From Piscirickettsiaceae bacterium CG07_land_8_20_14_0_80_44_28 (GTDB lineage Bacteria > Pseudomonadota > Gammaproteobacteria > Thiomicrospirales > Thiomicrospiraceae): a stretch of DNA of 64,000 nt. The notes below the pieces were generated by a model. The model was given only the letters and a program-made list of their open reading frames with translations. It made no database searches and was not told the DNA's origin. This document shows, in pieces, positions 765 to 53,279 of this stretch. Within the stretch, counting starts at the first letter, position 1, and every line of letters starts with the position of its first letter. A program made the translations under genes and the position numbers. Location: assembly GCA_002779995.1 (NCBI GenBank), contig PEWX01000076.1, positions 1-64,000 of the forward strand, written 5' to 3'.

Positions 765-779
765 AGTTGGGTGCTTATT

Positions 780-1028
780 ATGCTGGACAGAGAAAAAAAA
801 CCGTTCGGGAATAATGTTGTTTTGGGCGATGTGATTCAATTGGGTCAGGCTGTGCGCAGTAAGCGTAAGCAAGACGGTTTAACACAACAGGATTTAGCGG
901 CCATTGCGAATGTGGGTGTTCGTTTTGTATCCGATTTAGAAAACGGTAAATCGACTGTGCAACTGGATTCCGTTATGTCTGTTCTGCAAGCCTTGGGGTT
1001 AGAGTTATCTTTAGCCGAAAAGTCATAG
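780..1028 (+). CDS. hipB: HipB-type Xre antitoxin/repressor (module 1)
   Basis: The product is an 82-residue Xre-type helix-turn-helix protein. The HTH spans roughly residues 18-70 (LGQAVRSKRKQDGLTQQDLA, then VSDLENGKST). The usual HipB ending, ALGLELSL, is present. I start at ATG 780 rather than the upstream GTG 771 because ATG is the better initiator and the operator-like palindrome ends at 764. The gene is followed 12 bp later by hipA. It should bind HipA and repress the operon. Confidence 0.8.
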   Translation: MLDREKKPFGNNVVLGDVIQLGQAVRSKRKQDGLTQQDLAAIANVGVRFVSDLENGKSTVQLDSVMSVLQALGLELSLAEKS

Positions 1029-1040
1029 AGGCGTTTGTAT

Positions 1041-2255
1041 ATGCAAATACTGTACGTTTTTTATCAACAAAAACGGGTTGGTCAATTAATTAAAACCTCT
1101 GCAAGGCAAATGCAGTTTGCCTATGACCAGGCCTGGTTAAATGATCCTGAAGCATTCGCGTTGTCGATAAGCCTACCACTGAACCATGATACTTTTGACC
1201 ATGCTGAAACCTTTTTTGCCAATGTGTTGCCAGAAGGAGATGTTAGAACGGCTTTGTGTAAAAAACTGGGTTTATCTGAGAAAAACGATTTTGGTTTATT
1301 GGCCGAAATTGGGGGCGAGGTGGCAGGCGCTATTTCTATTTTTGACTCTAGTGATATTCCTGCTTACAAAACACAGCAGATCGAATTAGATGAGTCAAAA
1401 CTGGCTGAATTATTGCAATCACTGGAGAAATCACCCTTTAAGGCCTTGGACGGGGAAATACGGTTGTCTTTGGCGGGTGCTCAGAATAAATTACCGGTTA
1501 TTCAAACTGGCAATGTAGATACTCCCTTTGCCTTGCCCATTTCTCCAGATTTGGCAACGACTCATATCATTAAGTTACAGAATCCGCATTTTAGTGATTT
1601 AGTGTTAAATGAGTGGGTTTGTATGCGCTTGGCAAAAGCCGCAGGTTTAAATGTGCCACATGTGGATGTTTTGCCTATTGAGGGGCAGACCCACTTTATT
1701 ATTGAACGCTATGATCGAAGCCGTGGCAAAAGACTGCATCAAGAAGATTTTTGTCAGGCTCTAGCGATTGATGCTGACAATAAATATGAAGCCGAAGGCG
1801 GCCCGTCTTTAAAAGACTGCGCAGAGTTGATTCGTGATCACAGCCATAAACCTGCGGCTGATATTTTGCAATTTGTTCGCTGGGTTTTATTTAATGTGTT
1901 GATTGGTAATCGTGATGCACATGGTAAAAACATTGCGTTTTTGTATACATCAAGGTGTGAGCTCGCTCCATTTTATGACCTGTTATCTACCCAATGCTAT
2001 GAAGGCTTGAGTGATAAGTTCAGTATGAAAATCGGCGGTGAAAATCGACTGGATTGGTTACAAAAAAGGCATTTTGAACGATTTGCTGAAGAGATTGGGG
2101 TCAAATTCTCCCTGGTGGTAAAAGAGTTTAATAAATTAGTGAGTCTCATTGAAAAGAACCAAGGTTTATTAGATGAGTATCCGTTTTTAAGAAAAGTGAT
2201 TGATAGCAATATTAATCGCTTGAAACCAAGACTAGAAACAAAATATCAAAAGTAA
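1041..2255 (+). CDS. hipA: HipA-family serine/threonine kinase toxin (module 1)
   Basis: This is a 404-residue HipA kinase. The N-terminal couple_hipA region (about residues 1-110) is followed by a kinase-like C-terminal domain. Visible motifs are S143 in LSLAGAQNK, equivalent to the autophosphorylated Ser150 of E. coli HipA; an ATP-binding HIIKLQ; FIIERYDR; the catalytic N290-R-D-A-H-G-K-N; and the metal-binding D of FYDLLST. In E. coli the kinase phosphorylates GltX and induces persistence. ATG 1041 sits 9 bp from AGAGG; an in-frame TTG at 1035 is too close to it. The reading frame is intact. It contains one copy of the CCAGGCCTGG palindrome. Confidence 0.85.
   Translation: MQILYVFYQQKRVGQLIKTSARQMQFAYDQAWLNDPEAFALSISLPLNHDTFDHAETFFANVLPEGDVRTALCKKLGLSEKNDFGLLAEIGGEVAGAISIFDSSDIPAYKTQQIELDESKLAELLQSLEKSPFKALDGEIRLSLAGAQNKLPVIQTGNVDTPFALPISPDLATTHIIKLQNPHFSDLVLNEWVCMRLAKAAGLNVPHVDVLPIEGQTHFIIERYDRSRGKRLHQEDFCQALAIDADNKYEAEGGPSLKDCAELIRDHSHKPAADILQFVRWVLFNVLIGNRDAHGKNIAFLYTSRCELAPFYDLLSTQCYEGLSDKFSMKIGGENRLDWLQKRHFERFAEEIGVKFSLVVKEFNKLVSLIEKNQGLLDEYPFLRKVIDSNINRLKPRLETKYQK
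1127..1136. repeat. CCAGGCCTGG palindrome (in hipA)
   Basis: This is an exact copy of the iterated 10-bp palindrome. It encodes Q-A-W of hipA. The hipA relic at 5598-5654 retains CAGGCCTGG at the homologous position, so here the palindrome may simply be hipA coding sequence. Confidence 0.9.
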
Positions 2256-2324: not shown

Positions 2325-3797
2325 ATGTCAGAACAAACGGCTTCAACCATTGTTAATAAGGTTTGGAACTACGCGCATGTGTTGCGTGATGATGGTGTGG
2401 GTTATGGCGATTATGTGGAGCAGATTACCTATTTAATCTTTCTAAAAATGGCGGATGAACGTGCTGAAGAAGGGTTAAATGATGTGGGTGTTCCGGAGGC
2501 TTATCAGTGGTCAAATTTGGTAAAAGCCGATGGGGATGATTTAGAGATTCAGTATCGCCATACCTTAGAGCATTTAGGCAAAATGGGCGGTATGTTGGGT
2601 ACGATTTTTCGTAAATCGCAAAACAAAATACAAGACCCGGCTAAATTAGAACGCTTAATTAAGATGATTGATAAAGAGTCTTGGGCCACTTTGCCAGTGG
2701 ATGTGAAGGGCGATATTTATGAGGGTTTGTTGGAGCGTAACGCACAGGATGTTAAAGGCGGTGCTGGACAATACTTTACACCGCGTGCATTGATTGAAGC
2801 GATGGTGGAGGTGATGCAACCCAAGCCGACGGATGTGGTGGCGGATCCTGCGACTGGAACGGGTGGGTTTTTATTGGCGGCGCATGATTATATGGCCAAG
2901 CAAGTGACCTCCAAAGCCGAAGCCAAGCATCTTAAAAATGATGCGTTGCGTGGTAATGATATTGTGGATTCGGTGGTGCGTTTATGCGCGATGAATTTGT
3001 ATTTGCATGGCATTGGCGGCACAGAATGCCCGATTGTGAATCAGGATGCGTTAGCCAAAGAAGTAACCGATAAAGTGGATATGGTGTTAGCGAATCCGCC
3101 GTTTGGTAAAAGAAGTTCGATTACCGTGATGAGCGAAAAATCCGGTAAGGCAGAAATGGAAAAGCTGACTTATGAGCGTGAGGATTTTTGGGCAACCACG
3201 TCTAACAAGCAGCTGAACTTTGTGCAACATATCGCCAATATGCTCAAAGTAAACGGTAAGGCCGCTGTGGTGGTGCCGGATAATGTGATGTTTGAAGGCG
3301 GGGCGGGTGAGACGATTCGTAAAACCTTGCTAGAACGCACCAATGTGCATACTTTATTGCGTTTGCCGACCGGCATTTTTTACGCTAACGGGGTTAAGGC
3401 GAATGTGATTTTCTTTGATGCTAAACCCGCGAGTAAAACCGCTTGGACAAAGCAACTTTGGGTTTATGATTTTCGAACGAACGTTCATAAAACCTTGAAA
3501 CAAAATCGTCTAACGAAAAATGATTTCGCTGAGTTTATTGAGCTTTATAAAGCCGGTGATTTGTCGCAACGTCAAGCGACTTGGTCGTCAGAAAGCCTAG
3601 ATGGGCGGTGGCGCGCTTATGACTATGCCGAATTAATTGCCCGTGATAAAACCAATTTGGATATTTTTTGGCTGAAAGATAAAACCCTAGAAGATTCAGA
3701 AAACCTTCCAGCACCAGAAGTGTTGGCGGCTGAAATTGTAGAGCAGTTAGAGGCCGCTTTAACTGAGTTTAAAGAAGTAGAAAACTTGCTTGGCTAA
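2325..3797 (+). CDS. hsdM: Type I restriction-modification methyltransferase subunit, orphan HsdM
   Basis: This is a 490-residue N6-adenine DNA methyltransferase. It has a helical HsdM N-terminal domain (residues about 8-140), SAM motif I DPATGTGG near residue 173, and catalytic motif IV N257-PPFG. The C-terminus LDIFWLKDKTLEDSENL is typical of full-length HsdM, so the gene looks intact. ATG 2325 follows an AAAGGAAT ribosome binding site. HsdM normally works as M2S with HsdS for specificity and HsdR for cleavage, but neither lies in this window: the next gene is hipB. Two palindromic operators precede it. Specificity would need an S subunit supplied elsewhere. Confidence 0.92.
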   Translation: MSEQTASTIVNKVWNYAHVLRDDGVGYGDYVEQITYLIFLKMADERAEEGLNDVGVPEAYQWSNLVKADGDDLEIQYRHTLEHLGKMGGMLGTIFRKSQNKIQDPAKLERLIKMIDKESWATLPVDVKGDIYEGLLERNAQDVKGGAGQYFTPRALIEAMVEVMQPKPTDVVADPATGTGGFLLAAHDYMAKQVTSKAEAKHLKNDALRGNDIVDSVVRLCAMNLYLHGIGGTECPIVNQDALAKEVTDKVDMVLANPPFGKRSSITVMSEKSGKAEMEKLTYEREDFWATTSNKQLNFVQHIANMLKVNGKAAVVVPDNVMFEGGAGETIRKTLLERTNVHTLLRLPTGIFYANGVKANVIFFDAKPASKTAWTKQLWVYDFRTNVHKTLKQNRLTKNDFAEFIELYKAGDLSQRQATWSSESLDGRWRAYDYAELIARDKTNLDIFWLKDKTLEDSENLPAPEVLAAEIVEQLEAALTEFKEVENLLG

Positions 3798-3814: not shown

Positions 3815-3837
3815 AAATGACCAGGCCTGGTTGTTTT
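3815..3837 (+). terminator. Hairpin containing CCAGGCCTGG after hsdM
   Basis: The palindrome copy at 3821-3830 is extended by AAATGA on the left and TTGTTT on the right, pairing with two G-U wobbles, and is followed by a T-rich tract. It is a plausible but weak intrinsic terminator for hsdM. Confidence 0.5.
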
Positions 3838-3916: not shown

Positions 3917-3942
3917 TATTGTTATTGAATGGACTTTGGCTG

Positions 3943-4296
3943 ATGAAAACCCTTTTTGAAATCTCTCAGTTGTTACGTGAACGCCGTGAAGCTTTGAATT
4001 TGAGCCAAAAAGACATGTTGATGAAAATTGGTATGTCTCAGCAGCAGTATCAGCGTATTGAGGCGGGGGGCGATACCCGTTTATCGACGTTGTTGCGTGT
4101 ATTGGAAGGGATGGATTTGGAGTTGACGTTGGTGCCTAAAAATCAGGTGGCTGACGTAAAGAAGTTAATCAATGTCACTTCTTTTGATGCAGATTCAGTT
4201 ATGTCTGACCGCTCGCTTTCAACCGAAGAGGAATTTAAACAAGACTCTGAGCCAGGAAATCGCTGGAACGAAGTTTTAAAAGGGCTTGAGGATTAA
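3943..4296 (+). CDS. hipB: HipB-type Xre regulator (module 2)
   Basis: The product is a 117-residue protein with an N-terminal Xre helix-turn-helix (residues about 8-65: LLRERREALNLSQKDMLMKI, SQQQYQRIEAGGDTRLS) and a 50-residue acidic C-terminal tail (SLSTEEEFKQDSEPGNRWNEV). That tail is longer than in module 1. I choose ATG 3943; the longer frame starting at TTG 3919 would begin right at the last operator. The hipA-like gene starts 4 bp after its stop. It should repress through the three upstream operators and bind the HipA partner. Confidence 0.75.
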   Translation: MKTLFEISQLLRERREALNLSQKDMLMKIGMSQQQYQRIEAGGDTRLSTLLRVLEGMDLELTLVPKNQVADVKKLINVTSFDADSVMSDRSLSTEEEFKQDSEPGNRWNEVLKGLED

Positions 4297-4300
4297 GTCG

Positions 4301-5596
4301 ATGTCTAATCCAGTTGAAGCGTTTAAACCTTTGGAATCGGTAGAGGCGGTGTCTTTGTCGTTGCATGGTCAGCGTATTGGGGTGTTAAGCCATTATGCGG
4401 GCGGCAAAAATATTTTGGTGTTTGACCCTGAATATAATGCGTTGCCAAGTTCGACTAAACCGACTTTTACCTTAACTCAAACCTTAGATGAAGCTTATTT
4501 AACTAAGCCGCTCATTCATGCTCAAAAATTACCTCCCGTTTTATCTAATTTATTGCCGGAAGGGGAGTTTCGCGATTGGATGGCGGCTTCTTTGAAGGTG
4601 CATAAGGAAGATGAATTTCCGTTATTGGCTTGGTCGGGCAGCAATTTACCGGGGGCGATTTTGGCCGAACCGATTGCTATAGGTGACATTCCGGTATGGG
4701 ATTTGGCGGCACGCGAGCGCAGCGAACCGGTGCAGATAGCGGTGAACCGATCGGCTCAAAAGTTTTCTTTGGCGGGTGTGCAGATGAAGTTTTCTTCAAG
4801 CCATCAAGAGGGGCGTTTTAATCTTAATAGTGAGGCGGATGGGGATAGTTGGATTATTAAAACACCTTCTACTCTTCATAAAGACGTGCCTAAAAATGAA
4901 TATTCGGCCATGAAATTGGCTGAGGCGATTGGGGTGGATATTCCTGATATACAATTGGTCGAGCTGGCCGATTTGCAAAATTTGCCGGATATTCAGTTGC
5001 CAAATGAATCTCTGGCTTATGCGATAAAACGTTTTGATCGTAAGGAAACGGATGCCGGATTTGAGCGGGTGCATACTGAAGATTTTGCCCAGGTGTTTGA
5101 GCTTTATCCCCAAGACAAGTACAGCAAACGCAATTATGAACAAATTGCGGCAGCTCTTTATCAGCAGGGCGCACAAGGTTTGGAAGATGTTCAGCAAATG
5201 GCGCGTCGCTTGTTGGCGAATATTTTATTGGCAAATGGCGATGCGCATTTAAAAAACTGGTCTTTAATTTACCCTGATACCCGACAGGCTCGCTTGTCTC
5301 CCGCTTATGATATTGTGACGACCTTGGCTTTTATAAAAGGTGAAAGATCGCTGGCTTTGAATATGGCGAAACAGAAAGATTGGTACGAAATAAACCTGCA
5401 GAGTTTTCAGACTTGGGCCGAGCGAATTGGTGTTCCCTGGCCCGCAATACGTGTGCATGTGTTGGATGCGTTAGATAAAGCGCAAACACGTTGGCCCGAT
5501 TTATTAAAAGACTTGCCGATGACAGAAACGCACCGATCTGTGTTGCAGGCGCATTGGAAGAACCTTTCAACAGATTTAAACCCGATCAAAAAATGA
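4301..5596 (+). CDS. hipA: HipA-family kinase toxin (module 2)
   Basis: This is a 431-residue HipA-like kinase, only distantly similar to the module 1 protein. Motifs: S156 in KFSLAGVQMK (autophosphorylation-loop equivalent), WIIKTPS, YAIKRFDR, catalytic N312-G-D-A-H-L-K-N and the metal-binding D of SPAYDIV. The catalytic motif reads NGDAH rather than NRDAH, as in many non-E. coli HipA proteins. ATG 4301 follows a GAGGATTAAG ribosome binding site overlapping the end of hipB; an in-frame upstream start at 4286 lacks one. The frame is full length with no disruption. Its kinase target cannot be told from sequence. Confidence 0.85.
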   Translation: MSNPVEAFKPLESVEAVSLSLHGQRIGVLSHYAGGKNILVFDPEYNALPSSTKPTFTLTQTLDEAYLTKPLIHAQKLPPVLSNLLPEGEFRDWMAASLKVHKEDEFPLLAWSGSNLPGAILAEPIAIGDIPVWDLAARERSEPVQIAVNRSAQKFSLAGVQMKFSSSHQEGRFNLNSEADGDSWIIKTPSTLHKDVPKNEYSAMKLAEAIGVDIPDIQLVELADLQNLPDIQLPNESLAYAIKRFDRKETDAGFERVHTEDFAQVFELYPQDKYSKRNYEQIAAALYQQGAQGLEDVQQMARRLLANILLANGDAHLKNWSLIYPDTRQARLSPAYDIVTTLAFIKGERSLALNMAKQKDWYEINLQSFQTWAERIGVPWPAIRVHVLDALDKAQTRWPDLLKDLPMTETHRSVLQAHWKNLSTDLNPIKK

Positions 5597-5597
5597 G

Positions 5598-5654
5598 CAG
5601 GCCTGGTTAGATACTTTAGCAGCGTTTGCTCTGTTGATAAGCCTTCCGCAAAAC
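5598..5654 (+). pseudogene. Relic fragment of a hipA gene
   Basis: Immediately after the second hipA, one frame reads QAWLDTLAAFALLISLPQN. This matches QAWLNDPEAFALSISLPLN of the module 1 HipA (residues about 30-48) at 14 of 19 positions, and the DNA is about three-quarters identical. No start codon, no further similarity on either side, and the fragment begins exactly at the CAGGCCTGG sequence. It looks like the remnant of a third hipA, or debris from recombination between hipA copies. Confidence 0.65.
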
Positions 5655-5802
5655 GCCTGCATAAAAATAATAGCGCGGGGTTCGATTTGGTCACTTGCGG
5701 TCATCAGTGCGATGCTTTAACGCCCATGAAACCGTGAAATGCGATACCATAACGCCTTCTGAATTTTAAAAATTAACTCGTTAACTCCAATAAGGAATTT
5801 CT

Positions 5803-6645
5803 ATGCTCGTTAGCCATTCTGGCCGTTTTCATGCGGATGAAGTATTTGCCATTGCCATGATTTTGATGATTGAAGATAGGGAGATAGTGCGGTCACGAGA
5901 TCAAGAAGTCATAGACCAAGCAGAAATCGTGTTGGATGTTGGCGGGGAGTATGATCCTGAGCGGTTGCGCTTTGATCATCATCAAAACAGCTTTACCCGA
6001 GCGCGTGAAGATGGGACGCCTTATGCCACCGCAGGCTTGTTCTGGGAGCACTATGGCGCGAAAATTTTGGCGGCGAAAGGGCTGGAAGGGGACTATGAAA
6101 CGCAGTTTGCATTAGAGTGGGTGGATAAAAAAATTATCCGTGATATTGATGCGGTGGATAATGGTCTGTTTACAGAAGACCCACGTCCGTCTGTGTCGAT
6201 GTTGGTCGGGATGATGAATGTGTCTTCCTCGGATGATATAGAGCGGCAAGAGGCGGCGTTTCAAGACGCGATTGCGTTTACCCGTAATATTTTAAATAAT
6301 TTTATTCAGGCGGCGATTAAAGAAGCGGAAGTGGTTGTGGCGCTGGAGGCGTGCGCCAAGAACGTGGAAGAGGGCATTTTGGTGCTGGCGGAAAATTTGC
6401 CGTTTAAAGATTTTATTCGTTCTCATCCTGAAATTACCCGAGTGGTTTACCCGAAAGGCAGTGAAGGTTATGGCGTGTTTTGTAACGGTAAAGAAAATCA
6501 TTTTCCGGAACGCTTTCGGGGTTTGAGAGAAGAAGCACTACAAGCGGCGACTGGATTGGAAGATGCTGTATTTTGTCATAAATCTGGTTTTATGTCGGTT
6601 TGTAAAAGTTTTGAGAGTGCGTTGGCAATGGCGAAAAGCCATTGA
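5803..6645 (+). CDS. MYG1 family protein (UPF0160), DHH-like hydrolase fold
   Basis: This is a 280-residue protein with the MYG1 signature: SHSGRFHADEVFAIAM at the N-terminus, LDVGGEYDPERLRFDHHQ around residues 45-65, and the C-terminal NHFPERFRGLREEAL. Eukaryotic MYG1 is a mitochondrial/nuclear 3'-5' RNA exonuclease; the role of bacterial homologues is not established. The His/Asp motifs (HAD, FDHH) expected for metal binding are present. ATG 5803 follows TAAGGAATT. It stands alone on the plus strand between the accessory island and a tRNA gene, and a palindrome/T-tract at 6674-6692 may terminate it. Confidence 0.85.
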   Translation: MLVSHSGRFHADEVFAIAMILMIEDREIVRSRDQEVIDQAEIVLDVGGEYDPERLRFDHHQNSFTRAREDGTPYATAGLFWEHYGAKILAAKGLEGDYETQFALEWVDKKIIRDIDAVDNGLFTEDPRPSVSMLVGMMNVSSSDDIERQEAAFQDAIAFTRNILNNFIQAAIKEAEVVVALEACAKNVEEGILVLAENLPFKDFIRSHPEITRVVYPKGSEGYGVFCNGKENHFPERFRGLREEALQAATGLEDAVFCHKSGFMSVCKSFESALAMAKSH

Positions 6646-6673: not shown

Positions 6674-6692
6674 CCAGGCCTGGTGTTTTTTT
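6674..6692 (+). terminator. CCAGGCCTGG palindrome with T-tract after MYG1 gene
   Basis: This is an exact palindrome copy (6674-6683) followed by TG and seven or more T residues. The stem is short (ACCAGG/CCTGGT), so termination is plausible rather than certain. Confidence 0.5.
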
Positions 6693-11264: not shown

Positions 11265-12037
11265 TTGTTGAATGGTTTAAATATCTCTCTACGCCGTGCA
11301 TGCCTTATGCCCGAAAGATGGGGTATTTAACAGAGGCGATTGCCATGCAGTCGCGTCATAAGCGTTGCTATCGTCAATGGCAATCCCATTTTCAGTCTTG
11401 TCAAAATGCCATTCTAGAAGCGGTATCACAGTGTCAACAAAACCGCCATCTCGTGATAATGGGCGCGGGTTCTTTAGCCGATATTCCTTTAGCGCAGTTG
11501 GCTGAGAAATTTCAGCAAGTTGATTTGGTTGATTTGGTTTTTCTAAAACCAGCAAGGCAAACGGCAAAACAGTATGCCAATGTGACCCTGATAGAAGCAG
11601 ATGTGTCGGGTGTGTTGTCACAGGTGTGCGTTGGAGAGAAAACCAATCCCGATAAGGCTTACTGGCTGCCGGATCAGTTGGGGCAGGTGGATGCCGTCGT
11701 GTCATTGAATTTGGCGACACAATTGCCTTTAATTCCGGTTCGTTGGTTAATGAAGCATTTTGAGATGAGTGAAGCGGCTGCTGATCGACTGGGGAAGTCT
11801 TTAATTGAAGCCCACTTAAAGCAGTTGAATGAATTTTCGGGGGTAAAATGTTTAATTGCTGATCGGCAGATTCAGGAATATAACGCAGAAGGGACTTTAT
11901 TGGATCAATTTGATGCGGCGTGGGATATTTGCTTGCCAGATCTTAGCTCGGCATGGGATTGGGAAGTGATTCCGCTTGGAGAGTCGGTGCATAAAACGCG
12001 ACAAATCAATCGTGTTGGCGTGTCTATTTGGGGTTAG
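11261..12037 (+). CDS. Protein of unknown function, possibly SAM-binding Rossmann fold
   Basis: The product is 258 residues, starting at GTG 11261 and overlapping the ntrC stop by 4 bp, which suggests translational coupling. The segment HLVIMGAGSLADIPLAQLAE followed by VDLVDL and VTLIEADV resembles a class I methyltransferase nucleotide-binding region, but other motifs are too weak to be sure. A later start (for example ATG 11300) would shorten it by about 13 residues. It is the last gene of the ntrBC run, ending at the bidirectional hairpin 12044-12069. No known partner role in nitrogen control. Confidence 0.55.
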   Translation: MIVEWFKYLSTPCMPYARKMGYLTEAIAMQSRHKRCYRQWQSHFQSCQNAILEAVSQCQQNRHLVIMGAGSLADIPLAQLAEKFQQVDLVDLVFLKPARQTAKQYANVTLIEADVSGVLSQVCVGEKTNPDKAYWLPDQLGQVDAVVSLNLATQLPLIPVRWLMKHFEMSEAAADRLGKSLIEAHLKQLNEFSGVKCLIADRQIQEYNAEGTLLDQFDAAWDICLPDLSSAWDWEVIPLGESVHKTRQINRVGVSIWG

Positions 12038-12043
12038 GGGGAT

Positions 12044-12069
12044 AAAAACGACCAGGCCTGGTCGTTTTT
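12044..12069. terminator. Bidirectional terminator built on CCAGGCCTGG
   Basis: A perfect 26-bp palindrome consists of CCAGGCCTGG (12052-12061) extended by AAAAACGA on the left and TCGTTTTT on the right. It lies between the convergent ntrBC-run gene and glnB and supplies a stem plus U-tract on both strands. Confidence 0.85.
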
Positions 12070-12086
12070 AGGGTTAAAGGGTGTTT

Positions 12087-15625: not shown

Positions 15626-15656
15626 GTATAATCAACCGCAAACAAATTGTGATTGC

Positions 15657-15666
15657 CCAGGCCTGG
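15657..15666. repeat. CCAGGCCTGG palindrome (intergenic)
   Basis: This is an exact copy between the rhodanese terminator and the symporter start codon, followed by CTATTTTT. It lies in the symporter leader, so it is not a simple end-of-gene terminator. Confidence 0.85.
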
Positions 15667-15722
15667 CTATTTTTGCCAAAGAGCACCCGTCAAATCAACC
15701 TCGCGTTAGGAGACAATCGAAC

Positions 15723-50994: not shown

Positions 50995-53182
50995 AGAGGA
51001 CGTTCCTGAAGTTTGTCAGCACTTACTTCGTGATATTGAAGCTTATCAAGACGAAAATGCCAGATTACTTGATCAACATATTACCTTAGAACATCAGTTC
51101 AATTTGCTGGAACAGCAACTTACTGAAATAGAAGCTGAAGCACAAGATAACCTGCAATCCAATCAAAAAACTTTGGACTCCAATAATCAATATGAGCAAA
51201 TGTTTCTTCAATCGCCTATTGCTTTGGTTGAAGTTGATGAAAACGGGTTAATTATAGCTGCCAATCAGATGGCAGTTGAATTACTGCAAAAAAAGAGCTT
51301 GATATTAAAAAACACCAATATTAGAACTTTTTTAGTTGCAAAAAGTCGTGTCAATTTTATAAAAACAATTCAATCAATGATTTCAGACCTCAATGTCAAG
51401 CGAAACCAGCAGGTATTGACTTTCAAGGATGGTCGTTTGGTAGATGCTCAATTTCAAATTATTGATTCTGCCGTGATTCAAAACACAACTATTTTAATGT
51501 CATTAAATTTAATTGACCTTAACGTACCGTCTCCCCATTCATATCGATTGTTTTCAGTGATGTTTGAGCAGTCGAATGAAGGCGTCATTATCACCGATAG
51601 GGATGGCACCATTGTCAATGTCAATCATGCTTTTTGCGAAATTACGGGTTACAGCCAAATTGAAGCGATTGGTCAAAATCCTAAGCTGCTGCATTCTGGT
51701 TATCATAATGAAGCATTTTACAAAAAAATGTGGCAGCAGTTGTTGGATATAGGTTGGTGGTCTGGAGAAATTTGGAATAAGCGCAAAAATGGTGAGATTT
51801 ATCCAGAATGGTTATCGATTTATCGGGTGTATGATGAACAGTTGGCGCATACTTATTATATTGCTAATTTTTCCGATTTAACCCAACGAAAACATCATCA
51901 ACAACAGTTAGATCGATTGGCTTTTTATGATGCATTAACGGGGTTACCGAACCGAACTCGGCTCCACAACTTTATTGAAGATAAATTAGCCAGTGCCAAA
52001 TCGGCGGATAAAGTGGCGGTTTTGTTTTTGGATTTAGATAAATTTAAAGATGTTAATGATCAGTATGGCCATCCAGAAGGGGATCGGGTTCTAAGAGAAG
52101 CCGCCCAAAGAATCTTGTCGAGAATTCGAGAGGGGGATATGGCTTGTCGGGTAGGTGGTGATGAGTTCGTTGTGGTATTAACGCGTATTCATAAGCCGGA
52201 TGATGCTATTACAGTCGCTAAAGATATGGTGGAAGTTTTGTCTAAAGCGTTTGTAACTGAGCATAATCGGCACCGTTTATCTGTCTCTATTGGTCTGTCG
52301 TTTTCATCCAAACACGGAAAGAATTTCAGTGATTTGATGCGTCGCGCCGATTCAGCAATGTATAAAGCCAAACATCTGGGGCGTAATCGATTCCAAGTTT
52401 TTCAGCTTGAAGATGACGATCAACTCAATCATATTGCGACGGTTATTGCCCATATCTGGCGTGCGATTGATCGCCCGTTGCAAGCTATTGAGATGCACTA
52501 TCAACCCGTTTATAGTGCAGAAAATACGCTTTGCCCGCGTCATTTTGAAGCGCTGGTTCGCATTAAGACAGAAGATGACCAATTAATTTTCCCAGGGGAT
52601 TTTATTGAATTGGCTGAGCAGCATGGGTTGATGGATGAATTGGGCATGGCCATTTTTGAAGCCGTTTGCCGAGATATCGTCAAACATCGGCTTGATTCTG
52701 CTTTACGGGTTGCGGTTAACCTATCGCAACAGCAATTTTATAATGGCAATTTAATCGAGCACCTAGAGTTGAAAGCCAAAGAATTCCAATTAGATTTAAG
52801 TCGTTTTCAATTTGAAGTCACTGAAACCGCGACCATGGAAAATATCCATTCGATGAGAAAATTACTTGAAGGGTTAAAAAATAAGCAAGCTGATATTTTG
52901 TTAGATGATTTTGGAACGGGATATGCTTCCTTGTCCATTTTAAAAAATCTGCCAGTGAATATTCTTAAAATTGATCAAAGTTTTGTAAACGACATTGGCT
53001 GTTCGGTTGAGGTGGAAACACTGATTACGGCCATTATTGCTATGGCAAAAGCACTGGGCTTAGAGCTGGTTGCCGAAGGCGTTGAAACGGAAGCACAGTT
53101 GAAATGGTTAACGGCGCAAAAGGTCGATTATCTGCAAGGGTATTTTTTAGCCAAACCACAACTGCCTTTTAAATTAACTTAA
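50981..53182 (+). CDS. PAS-GGDEF-EAL c-di-GMP signalling protein
   Basis: The product is 733 residues: an N-terminal coiled coil, PAS (about 70-170), PAS with PAC (about 190-305), GGDEF (about 310-475) with an intact GGDEF at residues 392-396 and an RxxD I-site (R-E-G-D) five residues before it, then EAL (about 490-730) with EALVR and LLDDFGTGYASLSIL. Both cyclase and phosphodiesterase active sites look intact, so net activity cannot be predicted. No transmembrane segment. It is translationally coupled to the CheB-CheR gene. Its last codons and stop lie inside the left arm of the inverted-repeat element. Confidence 0.92.
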   Translation: MRLNKEDVPEVCQHLLRDIEAYQDENARLLDQHITLEHQFNLLEQQLTEIEAEAQDNLQSNQKTLDSNNQYEQMFLQSPIALVEVDENGLIIAANQMAVELLQKKSLILKNTNIRTFLVAKSRVNFIKTIQSMISDLNVKRNQQVLTFKDGRLVDAQFQIIDSAVIQNTTILMSLNLIDLNVPSPHSYRLFSVMFEQSNEGVIITDRDGTIVNVNHAFCEITGYSQIEAIGQNPKLLHSGYHNEAFYKKMWQQLLDIGWWSGEIWNKRKNGEIYPEWLSIYRVYDEQLAHTYYIANFSDLTQRKHHQQQLDRLAFYDALTGLPNRTRLHNFIEDKLASAKSADKVAVLFLDLDKFKDVNDQYGHPEGDRVLREAAQRILSRIREGDMACRVGGDEFVVVLTRIHKPDDAITVAKDMVEVLSKAFVTEHNRHRLSVSIGLSFSSKHGKNFSDLMRRADSAMYKAKHLGRNRFQVFQLEDDDQLNHIATVIAHIWRAIDRPLQAIEMHYQPVYSAENTLCPRHFEALVRIKTEDDQLIFPGDFIELAEQHGLMDELGMAIFEAVCRDIVKHRLDSALRVAVNLSQQQFYNGNLIEHLELKAKEFQLDLSRFQFEVTETATMENIHSMRKLLEGLKNKQADILLDDFGTGYASLSILKNLPVNILKIDQSFVNDIGCSVEVETLITAIIAMAKALGLELVAEGVETEAQLKWLTAQKVDYLQGYFLAKPQLPFKLT

Positions 53183-53279
53183 AGAGACCTTTGCACGGGT
53201 GGGGCGCGAAAGAAAATATGGGAAATTTTAACCCTTTTTATTCGTGACTTTATCTCGTGCAAAGGTCTCTTTAAGTTAA
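53174..53279. mobile_element. Small IS-derived inverted-repeat element (MITE-like)
   Basis: Perfect 24-bp inverted repeats at 53174-53197 and 53256-53279 enclose 58 bp. The core arms read AGAGACCTTTGCACG, flanked on both sides by TTAA, as expected for insertion with a 4-bp TTAA (YTAR-type) target duplication, giving an element of 88 bp (53183-53270). No transposase is present. IS5-like origin is suggested by the target pattern but not confirmed. The hairpin may also stop transcription. Confidence 0.7.

What the first reader, a model, noticed from the sequence alone, without database searches (positions are those of the whole stretch)
5598..5654. hipA relic joined at the CAGGCCTGG sequence
A 57-bp piece encoding 19 residues matches HipA module 1 (14 of 19 identical) and starts exactly at the palindrome, right after the second hipA stop. 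It shows gene decay in the island and suggests the palindrome may be a recombination or breakage point.
Basis: seen in the sequence. Interest (0 to 1): 0.5.

Follow-up and report, generated by a model that had tools for sequence, protein, structure and literature searches.

The report
hipA scrap at an iterated palindrome
The 57 bases are a real scrap of a dead hipA toxin gene, and the palindrome where the scrap begins is one of about 400 identical copies scattered through this bacterium's genome that look like a palindromic "take up this DNA" tag, absent or spelled differently in some relatives.

Summary
Window 5598-5654 matches hipA1 1128-1184 at 41 of 57 bases and 13 of 19 residues (not 14), beyond chance, and is about equally close to hipA1 homologues of other genera.

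CAGGCCTGG is part of hipA's own coding sequence (codons Q-A-W, kept in 6 of 7 close homologues). It is also one copy of an element present 404 times in this genome; intergenic copies mostly lie just after stop codons. So the join needs no special breakpoint. The simplest account is a short-homology deletion between an element at the hipA2 stop and one inside a lost third hipA; that fits this one join and is not shown to be general.

The element is the more interesting object: a 10-bp palindrome with A/T tracts repeating every 10.5 bp on both sides, inside genes too. Copies avoid each other and are conserved. 26 of 62 family genomes have at least 200 copies and 30 have 8 or fewer; one relative has 1025 ACCGGCCGGT instead. 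It works most like a DNA uptake sequence; uptake itself was not tested.

The parts
5598..5654 (+). hipA relic: 19 codons of the N-terminal part of a third, divergent hipA
   Evidence: 41/57 bases and 13/19 residues to hipA1; 34-39/57 to six homologues
5597..5606 (.). element copy GCAGGCCTGG (9 of 10) one base after the hipA2 stop; left arm ideal, right arm hipA-like
5655..5709 (.). unassigned DNA between the relic and the sequence shared with relatives
   Evidence: blastn sharing with G006 begins at 5710 and with G008 at 5714; no convincing hipA match
4301..5596 (+). hipA2 (open frame from 4286; ATG at 4301)
   Evidence: HipA_C 1.2e-49, Couple_hipA 3.1e-15
3919..4296 (+). hipB2-like antitoxin (HTH_3)
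3821..3830 (.). element CCAGGCCTGG after the hsdM-like gene
2325..3797 (+). hsdM-like methyltransferase (named by eye, not searched)
1041..2255 (+). hipA1, closest intact homologue in the window
   Evidence: HipA_C 4.7e-59, Couple_hipA 1.4e-24
1127..1136 (.). element CCAGGCCTGG inside hipA1 (codons Q-A-W)
771..1028 (+). hipB1-like antitoxin (HTH_3)
5803..6645 (+). MYG1 family gene right of the island, shared with relatives
   Evidence: aligned to G006 and G008
6674..6683 (.). element CCAGGCCTGG after the MYG1 gene, conserved in G006

Best explanation
5598-5654 is the last visible piece of a third, divergent hipA that decayed at the right end of a hip/hsdM island. It begins at CAGGCCTGG because that word is a genome-wide iterated element, native both just after gene ends (here the hipA2 stop) and inside hipA (the Q-A-W codons). 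A deletion using those roughly ten identical bases as short homology would fuse the end of hipA2 to the inside of hipA3; later loss removed the rest (inferred). The element is a DNA-level recognition site: a palindrome plus A/T tracts phased to the helix on both sides, kept in number and spelling by something that differs between species. Its best-fitting role is a self-recognition tag for natural DNA uptake, working like the USS of Pasteurellaceae, with some intergenic copies also able to form terminator hairpins (inferred). Shown: the relic, the iterated element, its anatomy, spacing, conservation and dialects. Not shown: the deletion event, and any uptake.
For: Relic. Element native to hipA in 6 of 7 homologues and missing in the one from a genome with 3 copies. 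Left arm at 5598 scores highest of 178 half-sites, right arm in the lowest 6%. 404 copies, reversed word 0; 90 perfect against 24 one-mismatch copies in 464 kb. A/T tracts at 10.5, 21 and 31.5 bp from the centre, in coding and non-coding sites alike, 0 of 1000 permutations each. 3 of 83 gaps under 1 kb against 15.1 expected. Conserved at 8 of 11 alignable places in G006 and 4 of 5 in G008, controls 3-19%. Copy number 200 or more in 26 of 62 genomes, 8 or fewer in 30; G031 has 1025 ACCGGCCGGT, the other 61 at most 15. ComEC in 26 of 26 rich genomes.
Against: No intact third hipA was found at this place, and homologues of hipA2 (33-55% identity) have no element at their ends in the DNA held. Four other intergenic sites have one weak arm, so a hybrid look is not proof of a join. 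ComEC is also in 30 of 36 other genomes, so it does not discriminate. Known uptake sequences are not palindromes and are described as not biased to positions downstream of genes (PMC1939737 passages), and close neighbours are described as common among USS (PMC7811141 passage); the element differs on each point. No receptor was looked for.
Confidence: 0.55

Rival explanations
1. Chance: the similarity is the shared palindrome plus luck in 48 further bases.
For: The first three residues come from the element; genome blastn E is only 0.0027, hardly better than bare element copies; Pfam sees nothing.
Against: 32 of 48 bases beyond the core, next best 28 over the 464-kb sample on both strands; the same register matches six hipA homologues, three of them found independently by blastn.
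Confidence: 0.06
2. The element is a HIP1-like methylation site kept by an orphan DNA methyltransferase.
For: Palindromic, highly iterated, absent or respelled in some genomes, as described for HIP1 (PMC4390886 passages).
Against: 14 of 26 rich genomes have no hit at E<=1e-10 to either PF00145 or PF01555; phased A/T tracts on both sides are not part of HIP1 as I recall it. Other methyltransferase families were not searched.
Confidence: 0.12
3. The element binds an intracellular symmetric DNA-bending or wrapping protein (chromosome organiser, or a strong gyrase site).
For: Dyad symmetry and three helical turns of phased A/T on each side; preference for gene ends.
Against: A full change of spelling in G031 and near absence in 4 of 11 genomes of the window's genus are odd for a housekeeping protein.
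Confidence: 0.22
4. The element is a transcription terminator.
For: 37 of 47 distances from intergenic copies to a neighbouring 3' end are 38 bp or less; fully symmetric spacers at 12 of 37 non-coding against 5 of 53 coding sites; 12033-12080 folds at -14.7 kcal/mol, z -2.8.
Against: 53 of 90 sampled sites are inside genes with the same phased flanks; 5 sites were folded and the one at 5598 folds worse than its shuffles (z 1.5).
Confidence: 0.05

Closest known systems
USS (uptake signal sequence) of Pasteurellaceae
   Same: Short sharp core in high copy in and between genes, with A/T tracts at helical spacing (PMC12616744 passage; PMC7811141 passages)
   Different: Palindromic core, tracts on both sides over three turns, lower density (about one per 5.6 kb); uptake untested
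DUS (DNA uptake sequence) of Neisseriaceae and its dialects
   Same: Spelling differs between related species, some genomes lack it, and intergenic copies are linked to terminators (PMC3630211 passages)
   Different: DUS gain a hairpin by inverted pairs, here one copy is its own inverted repeat; no ComP-like receptor was looked for
HIP1 of cyanobacteria
   Same: Highly iterated palindrome (PMC4390886 passages)
   Different: Other word, phased A/T flanks, and no common partner among the two methyltransferase families searched
hipA/hipBA toxin-antitoxin genes
   Same: The relic and two intact neighbours belong here
   Different: The relic is a 19-codon remnant without the kinase part

Membership tests
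hipA (as a relic) | Sequence homology to HipA N-terminal part | tested here: met
   13/19 residues, 41/57 bases to hipA1; 34-39/57 to six homologues; Pfam no hit
hipA (as a relic) | HipA_C kinase domain | tested here: not met
   nothing hipA-like convincing after 5654
USS/DUS uptake sequences | Extreme over-representation of a 9-12 bp word in and between genes | tested here: met
   404 copies, reversed word 0; 53 in genes, 35 between
USS/DUS uptake sequences | Dialects between related species | tested here: met
USS/DUS uptake sequences | Helically spaced A/T tracts (USS only) | tested here: met
   but on both sides
USS/DUS uptake sequences | Non-palindromic core (as described for the known ones) | tested here: not met
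   CCAGGCCTGG is its own reverse complement; PMC1939737 passage
USS/DUS uptake sequences | Raises DNA uptake; bound by a competence pilus receptor | not testable with these tools
   only ComEC presence was checked
HIP1-type iterated palindrome | Internal site of a resident orphan methyltransferase | tested here: inconclusive
   two Pfam families searched, neither hit in 14 of 26 rich genomes; other families not searched, no methylome
Intrinsic terminator | Confined to gene ends with a stable hairpin | tested here: not met
   53 of 90 sites intragenic; 5598 has no stable hairpin

The most novel reading that the evidence does not exclude
The palindrome is a third, independently evolved natural DNA uptake tag, and the first that is palindromic and flanked symmetrically by helically phased A/T tracts, with dialects that switch on, off and change spelling among Hydrogenovibrio, Thiomicrorhabdus and Thiomicrospira relatives; the hipA scrap records a recombination that used two copies of it.
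Probability: 0.42. Interest if true: 0.8.

Novelty: new variant of a known kind. Interest (0 to 1): 0.55.

Why it matters
The relic alone is ordinary gene decay. If the element is an uptake tag, self-specific DNA uptake would extend beyond Pasteurellaceae and Neisseriaceae to free-living sulfur-oxidising chemolithoautotrophs, and the family's mosaic of carriers, non-carriers and one respelled genome would let one ask how such tags arise, die and change partner. A symmetric tag would also constrain how an uptake pore grips and bends DNA.

Tried and rejected
Rejected: similarity by chance; the palindrome as a feature of this island (404 copies genome-wide); hipA similarity going on past 5654 (best stray hit E 0.019 to one locus, not in the hipA register). 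A 26-base match of 5649-5674 to the 3' end of a CheW-like gene (named by eye) in G057 (24 of 26; 60 random intergenic 26-mers reached at most 21 in the same 200 kb) was picked as one of the best over 62 genomes (E 5e-4 in one genome) and is left as chance or unexplained. A half repeat beside the element at L044 6521 may be truncated there or may be a whole copy in which the element arose; the alignment does not decide. Synteny gaps against G006 were looked at, not put to a formal test.

Literature: the word itself (49 papers, 20 listed, none of these 20 titles about a bacterial genome element); Hydrogenovibrio with DNA uptake sequence (0) or natural transformation (2, not on this by title and abstract start); Thiomicrospira crunogena with competence (3, not relevant by title); highly iterated palindrome (14); broader listings of which 20 or fewer rows were seen. 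None of these listings showed the element described. Subscription papers and preprints are not in that library. One viral scan for the flanked element found nothing.

Full report
What was checked. hipA2 stops at 5594-5596, one G follows, and CAGGCCTGG starts at 5598. The frame starting there reads QAWLDTLAAFALLISLPQN; hipA1 reads QAWLNDPEAFALSISLPLN. That is 13 of 19 residues and 41 of 57 bases; without the 9-base core, 32 of 48.

Is it more than chance? The first three residues are not evidence, because the palindrome itself encodes Q-A-W and sits in many genes. The rest is. Sliding the 48-base hipA1 segment over 464 kb of this genome on both strands, the relic scores 32 and the next best place 28. 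Among 19,110 pairs of element-anchored flanks the mean is 14.3 (sd 3.4). Five pairs score 31 or more: this one, a duplicated gene end in L056, two genes that read as MoxR-like paralogues, and two pairs among three neighbouring genes in L050 whose kinship I did not test. The same register is hit in hipA1 homologues of other genera: in G019, G082 and G030 by blastn (places inside the hipA homologues), and at 34-39 of 57 bases in six homologues by direct comparison. So the piece is hipA-derived and about equally far from every copy compared: a third, divergent hipA. Results that weigh less or against: the genome-wide blastn E is 0.0027, bare element copies reach 0.005; blastp E is 0.007; Pfam sees nothing; similarity ends at 5654.

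Where the palindrome belongs. Of seven full-length hipA1 homologues of 72% identity or more, hipA1 included, six have CAGGCCTGG at the Q-A-W codons. The exception is from G057, which has 3 copies of CCAGGCCTGG in its genome; the other five relatives have 298 to 747. The word is thus native to hipA in element-rich genomes, and it is also what is found just after stop codons. At 5598 the left arm is the best of 178 half-sites (score 10.0) and the right arm is in the lowest 6%; four other intergenic sites also have one weak arm, so this look is suggestive only. The simplest history is a deletion between two native copies sharing about ten bases. That is inferred: six homologues of hipA2 (33-55% identity) have no element at their ends in the DNA held, and no genome with an intact third hipA at this place was seen. 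Sequence shared with relatives begins at 5710 (G006) or 5714 (G008); there the left neighbours are other genes (a queC-like gene and a tRNA-like stretch in G006, a deacetylase-like gene in G008; named by eye) and the island is absent at this place.

Is the palindrome a breakpoint in general? Flanks of 39 intergenic elements were translated and compared with the 402 genes called in the 464-kb sample, about a fifth of the genome. Five rows score better than the relic: a duplicated gene end (L056 294), a decayed ORF fragment that does not touch its element (L056 1426), the start of an apparently mis-called gene (L041 7205), and two matches made by the element's own codons (window 19748, 3822). 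Only the relic begins at an element. The L056 duplicate is 196 bp, 91% identical, with its element 39 bp from the edge and an antitoxin-like ORF (by eye) between the copies. A half repeat ending beside an element is ambiguous. Against G006, 1 of 7 gaps between aligned blocks (15628-15706) holds an element.

The element. CCAGGCCTGG occurs 14 times in the window (0.07 expected) and 404 times in the 2.28-Mb genome, with 0 for the reversed word. In 464 kb there are 90 perfect copies and 24 with one mismatch. By a home-made gene caller 53 are in genes, 35 between genes and 2 at edges; 12 intergenic ones are in convergent gaps (3.5 of 48.4 kb) and none in divergent gaps (12.8 kb); 37 of 47 distances to a neighbouring 3' end are 38 bp or less. 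A+T is 0.97 at 9.5 bp from the centre, 0.37 at 16.5, 0.74 at 21.5 and 0.69 at 31.5. Coding and non-coding sites show the same 10.5-bp wave, with 0 of 1000 permutations reaching it in either class. Fully symmetric spacers, which would lengthen a hairpin, are found at 12 of 37 non-coding and 5 of 53 coding sites. Copies avoid each other: 3 of 83 gaps are under 1 kb against 15.1 expected, not reached in 2000 simulations; the coefficient of variation is less striking (3.6% of simulations as low). Of 11 window copies alignable to G006, 8 are intact, and 4 of 5 to G008; other GC-rich 10-mers are intact in 5.2% (coding) and 18.6% (non-coding) of cases for G006 and 3.0% and 12.7% for G008.

Distribution and dialects. 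Of 62 family genomes, 26 have 234-856 copies, 6 have 15-106 and 30 have 8 or fewer; in the window's genus 7 of 11 are rich and 4 have 0 or 1. Of the 55 genomes, those outside the family have at most 35, some with comparable control counts. The 26-base consensus was found in 11 stretches of the 84,980-species collection: seven of Hydrogenovibrio sp. SC-1 and one each of a Thiomicrospira, a Thiomicrorhabdus, a Thiotrichales MAG and a gammaproteobacterial MAG; the window's genome is therefore probably a Hydrogenovibrio or near relative (inference). G031, with no CCAGGCCTGG, has 1025 ACCGGCCGGT; the other 61 genomes have at most 15. G025 favours CAGGCCTG with other outer bases. In G031 and G025 the first A/T tract is present but the wave beyond it is weak or absent in these small samples (64 and 54 half-flanks). 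Samples of 40-80 kb from G001, G003, G010, G018, G057 and G061 show no comparable word once local repeats are set aside (for G001, G057 and G061 only palindromic words were ranked).

What it works like. A sharp core, A/T tracts at helical spacing, presence in and between genes, terminator-like copies between genes, and dialects with absences are what is described for uptake sequences: USS with AT-rich regions at helical spacing (PMC12616744 passage; PMC7811141 passages), DUS dialects, genomes without DUS and terminator pairs (PMC3630211 passages), DUS spacing matched to conversion fragments (PMC2397512 passages). It differs: known uptake sequences are said not to be palindromes and not biased to positions downstream of genes (PMC1939737 passages), and USS often lie close together (PMC7811141 passage). 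ComEC is found in 26 of 26 rich genomes but also in 30 of 36 others, which is compatible and no more. Against a HIP1-type reading, 14 of 26 rich genomes have no hit to PF00145 or PF01555 at E<=1e-10; other methyltransferase families were not searched, and this genome has hits to both (for PF00145 only two pieces at contig ends). A symmetric intracellular DNA-bending protein remains possible. I therefore do not file the element as an uptake sequence; I say it works most like one.

Verdict. The larger finding is the element. Odds of the uptake reading were lowered slightly in checking (0.45 to 0.42, and 0.55 overall) because the wave is weak in the other dialects and the spacing rule is not that described for USS.

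Noticed in passing
G031 whole genome (samples L099-L102): 1025 copies of ACCGGCCGGT and none of CCAGGCCTGG: a complete change of spelling in one relative.
   Followed up: partly
G025 (samples L087-L090): CAGGCCTG core with varied outer bases, 27 sites in 80 kb, only 27 CCAGGCCTGG genome-wide.
   Followed up: partly
L056 254-449 and 1387-1581 (G000:C17): 196-bp, 91% duplicate of the 3' end of a gene that reads like dihydrolipoamide dehydrogenase, element included, with an antitoxin-like ORF between the copies (names by eye).
   Followed up: partly
window 53174-53279 and other places in the sample: A roughly 105-bp interspersed repeat with inverted ends (MITE-like); 24 blastn pieces in 464 kb.
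   Followed up: partly
window 2325-3797: An hsdM-like gene (by eye) between two hipBA pairs; no hsdS or hsdR was looked for outside the open frames.
   Followed up: no
window 5649-5674: 26 bases match the 3' end of a CheW-like gene in G057 at 24 of 26; chance or unexplained.
   Followed up: partly
window 1: The window begins at the first base of contig C50, so the left end of the island is not visible.
   Followed up: no
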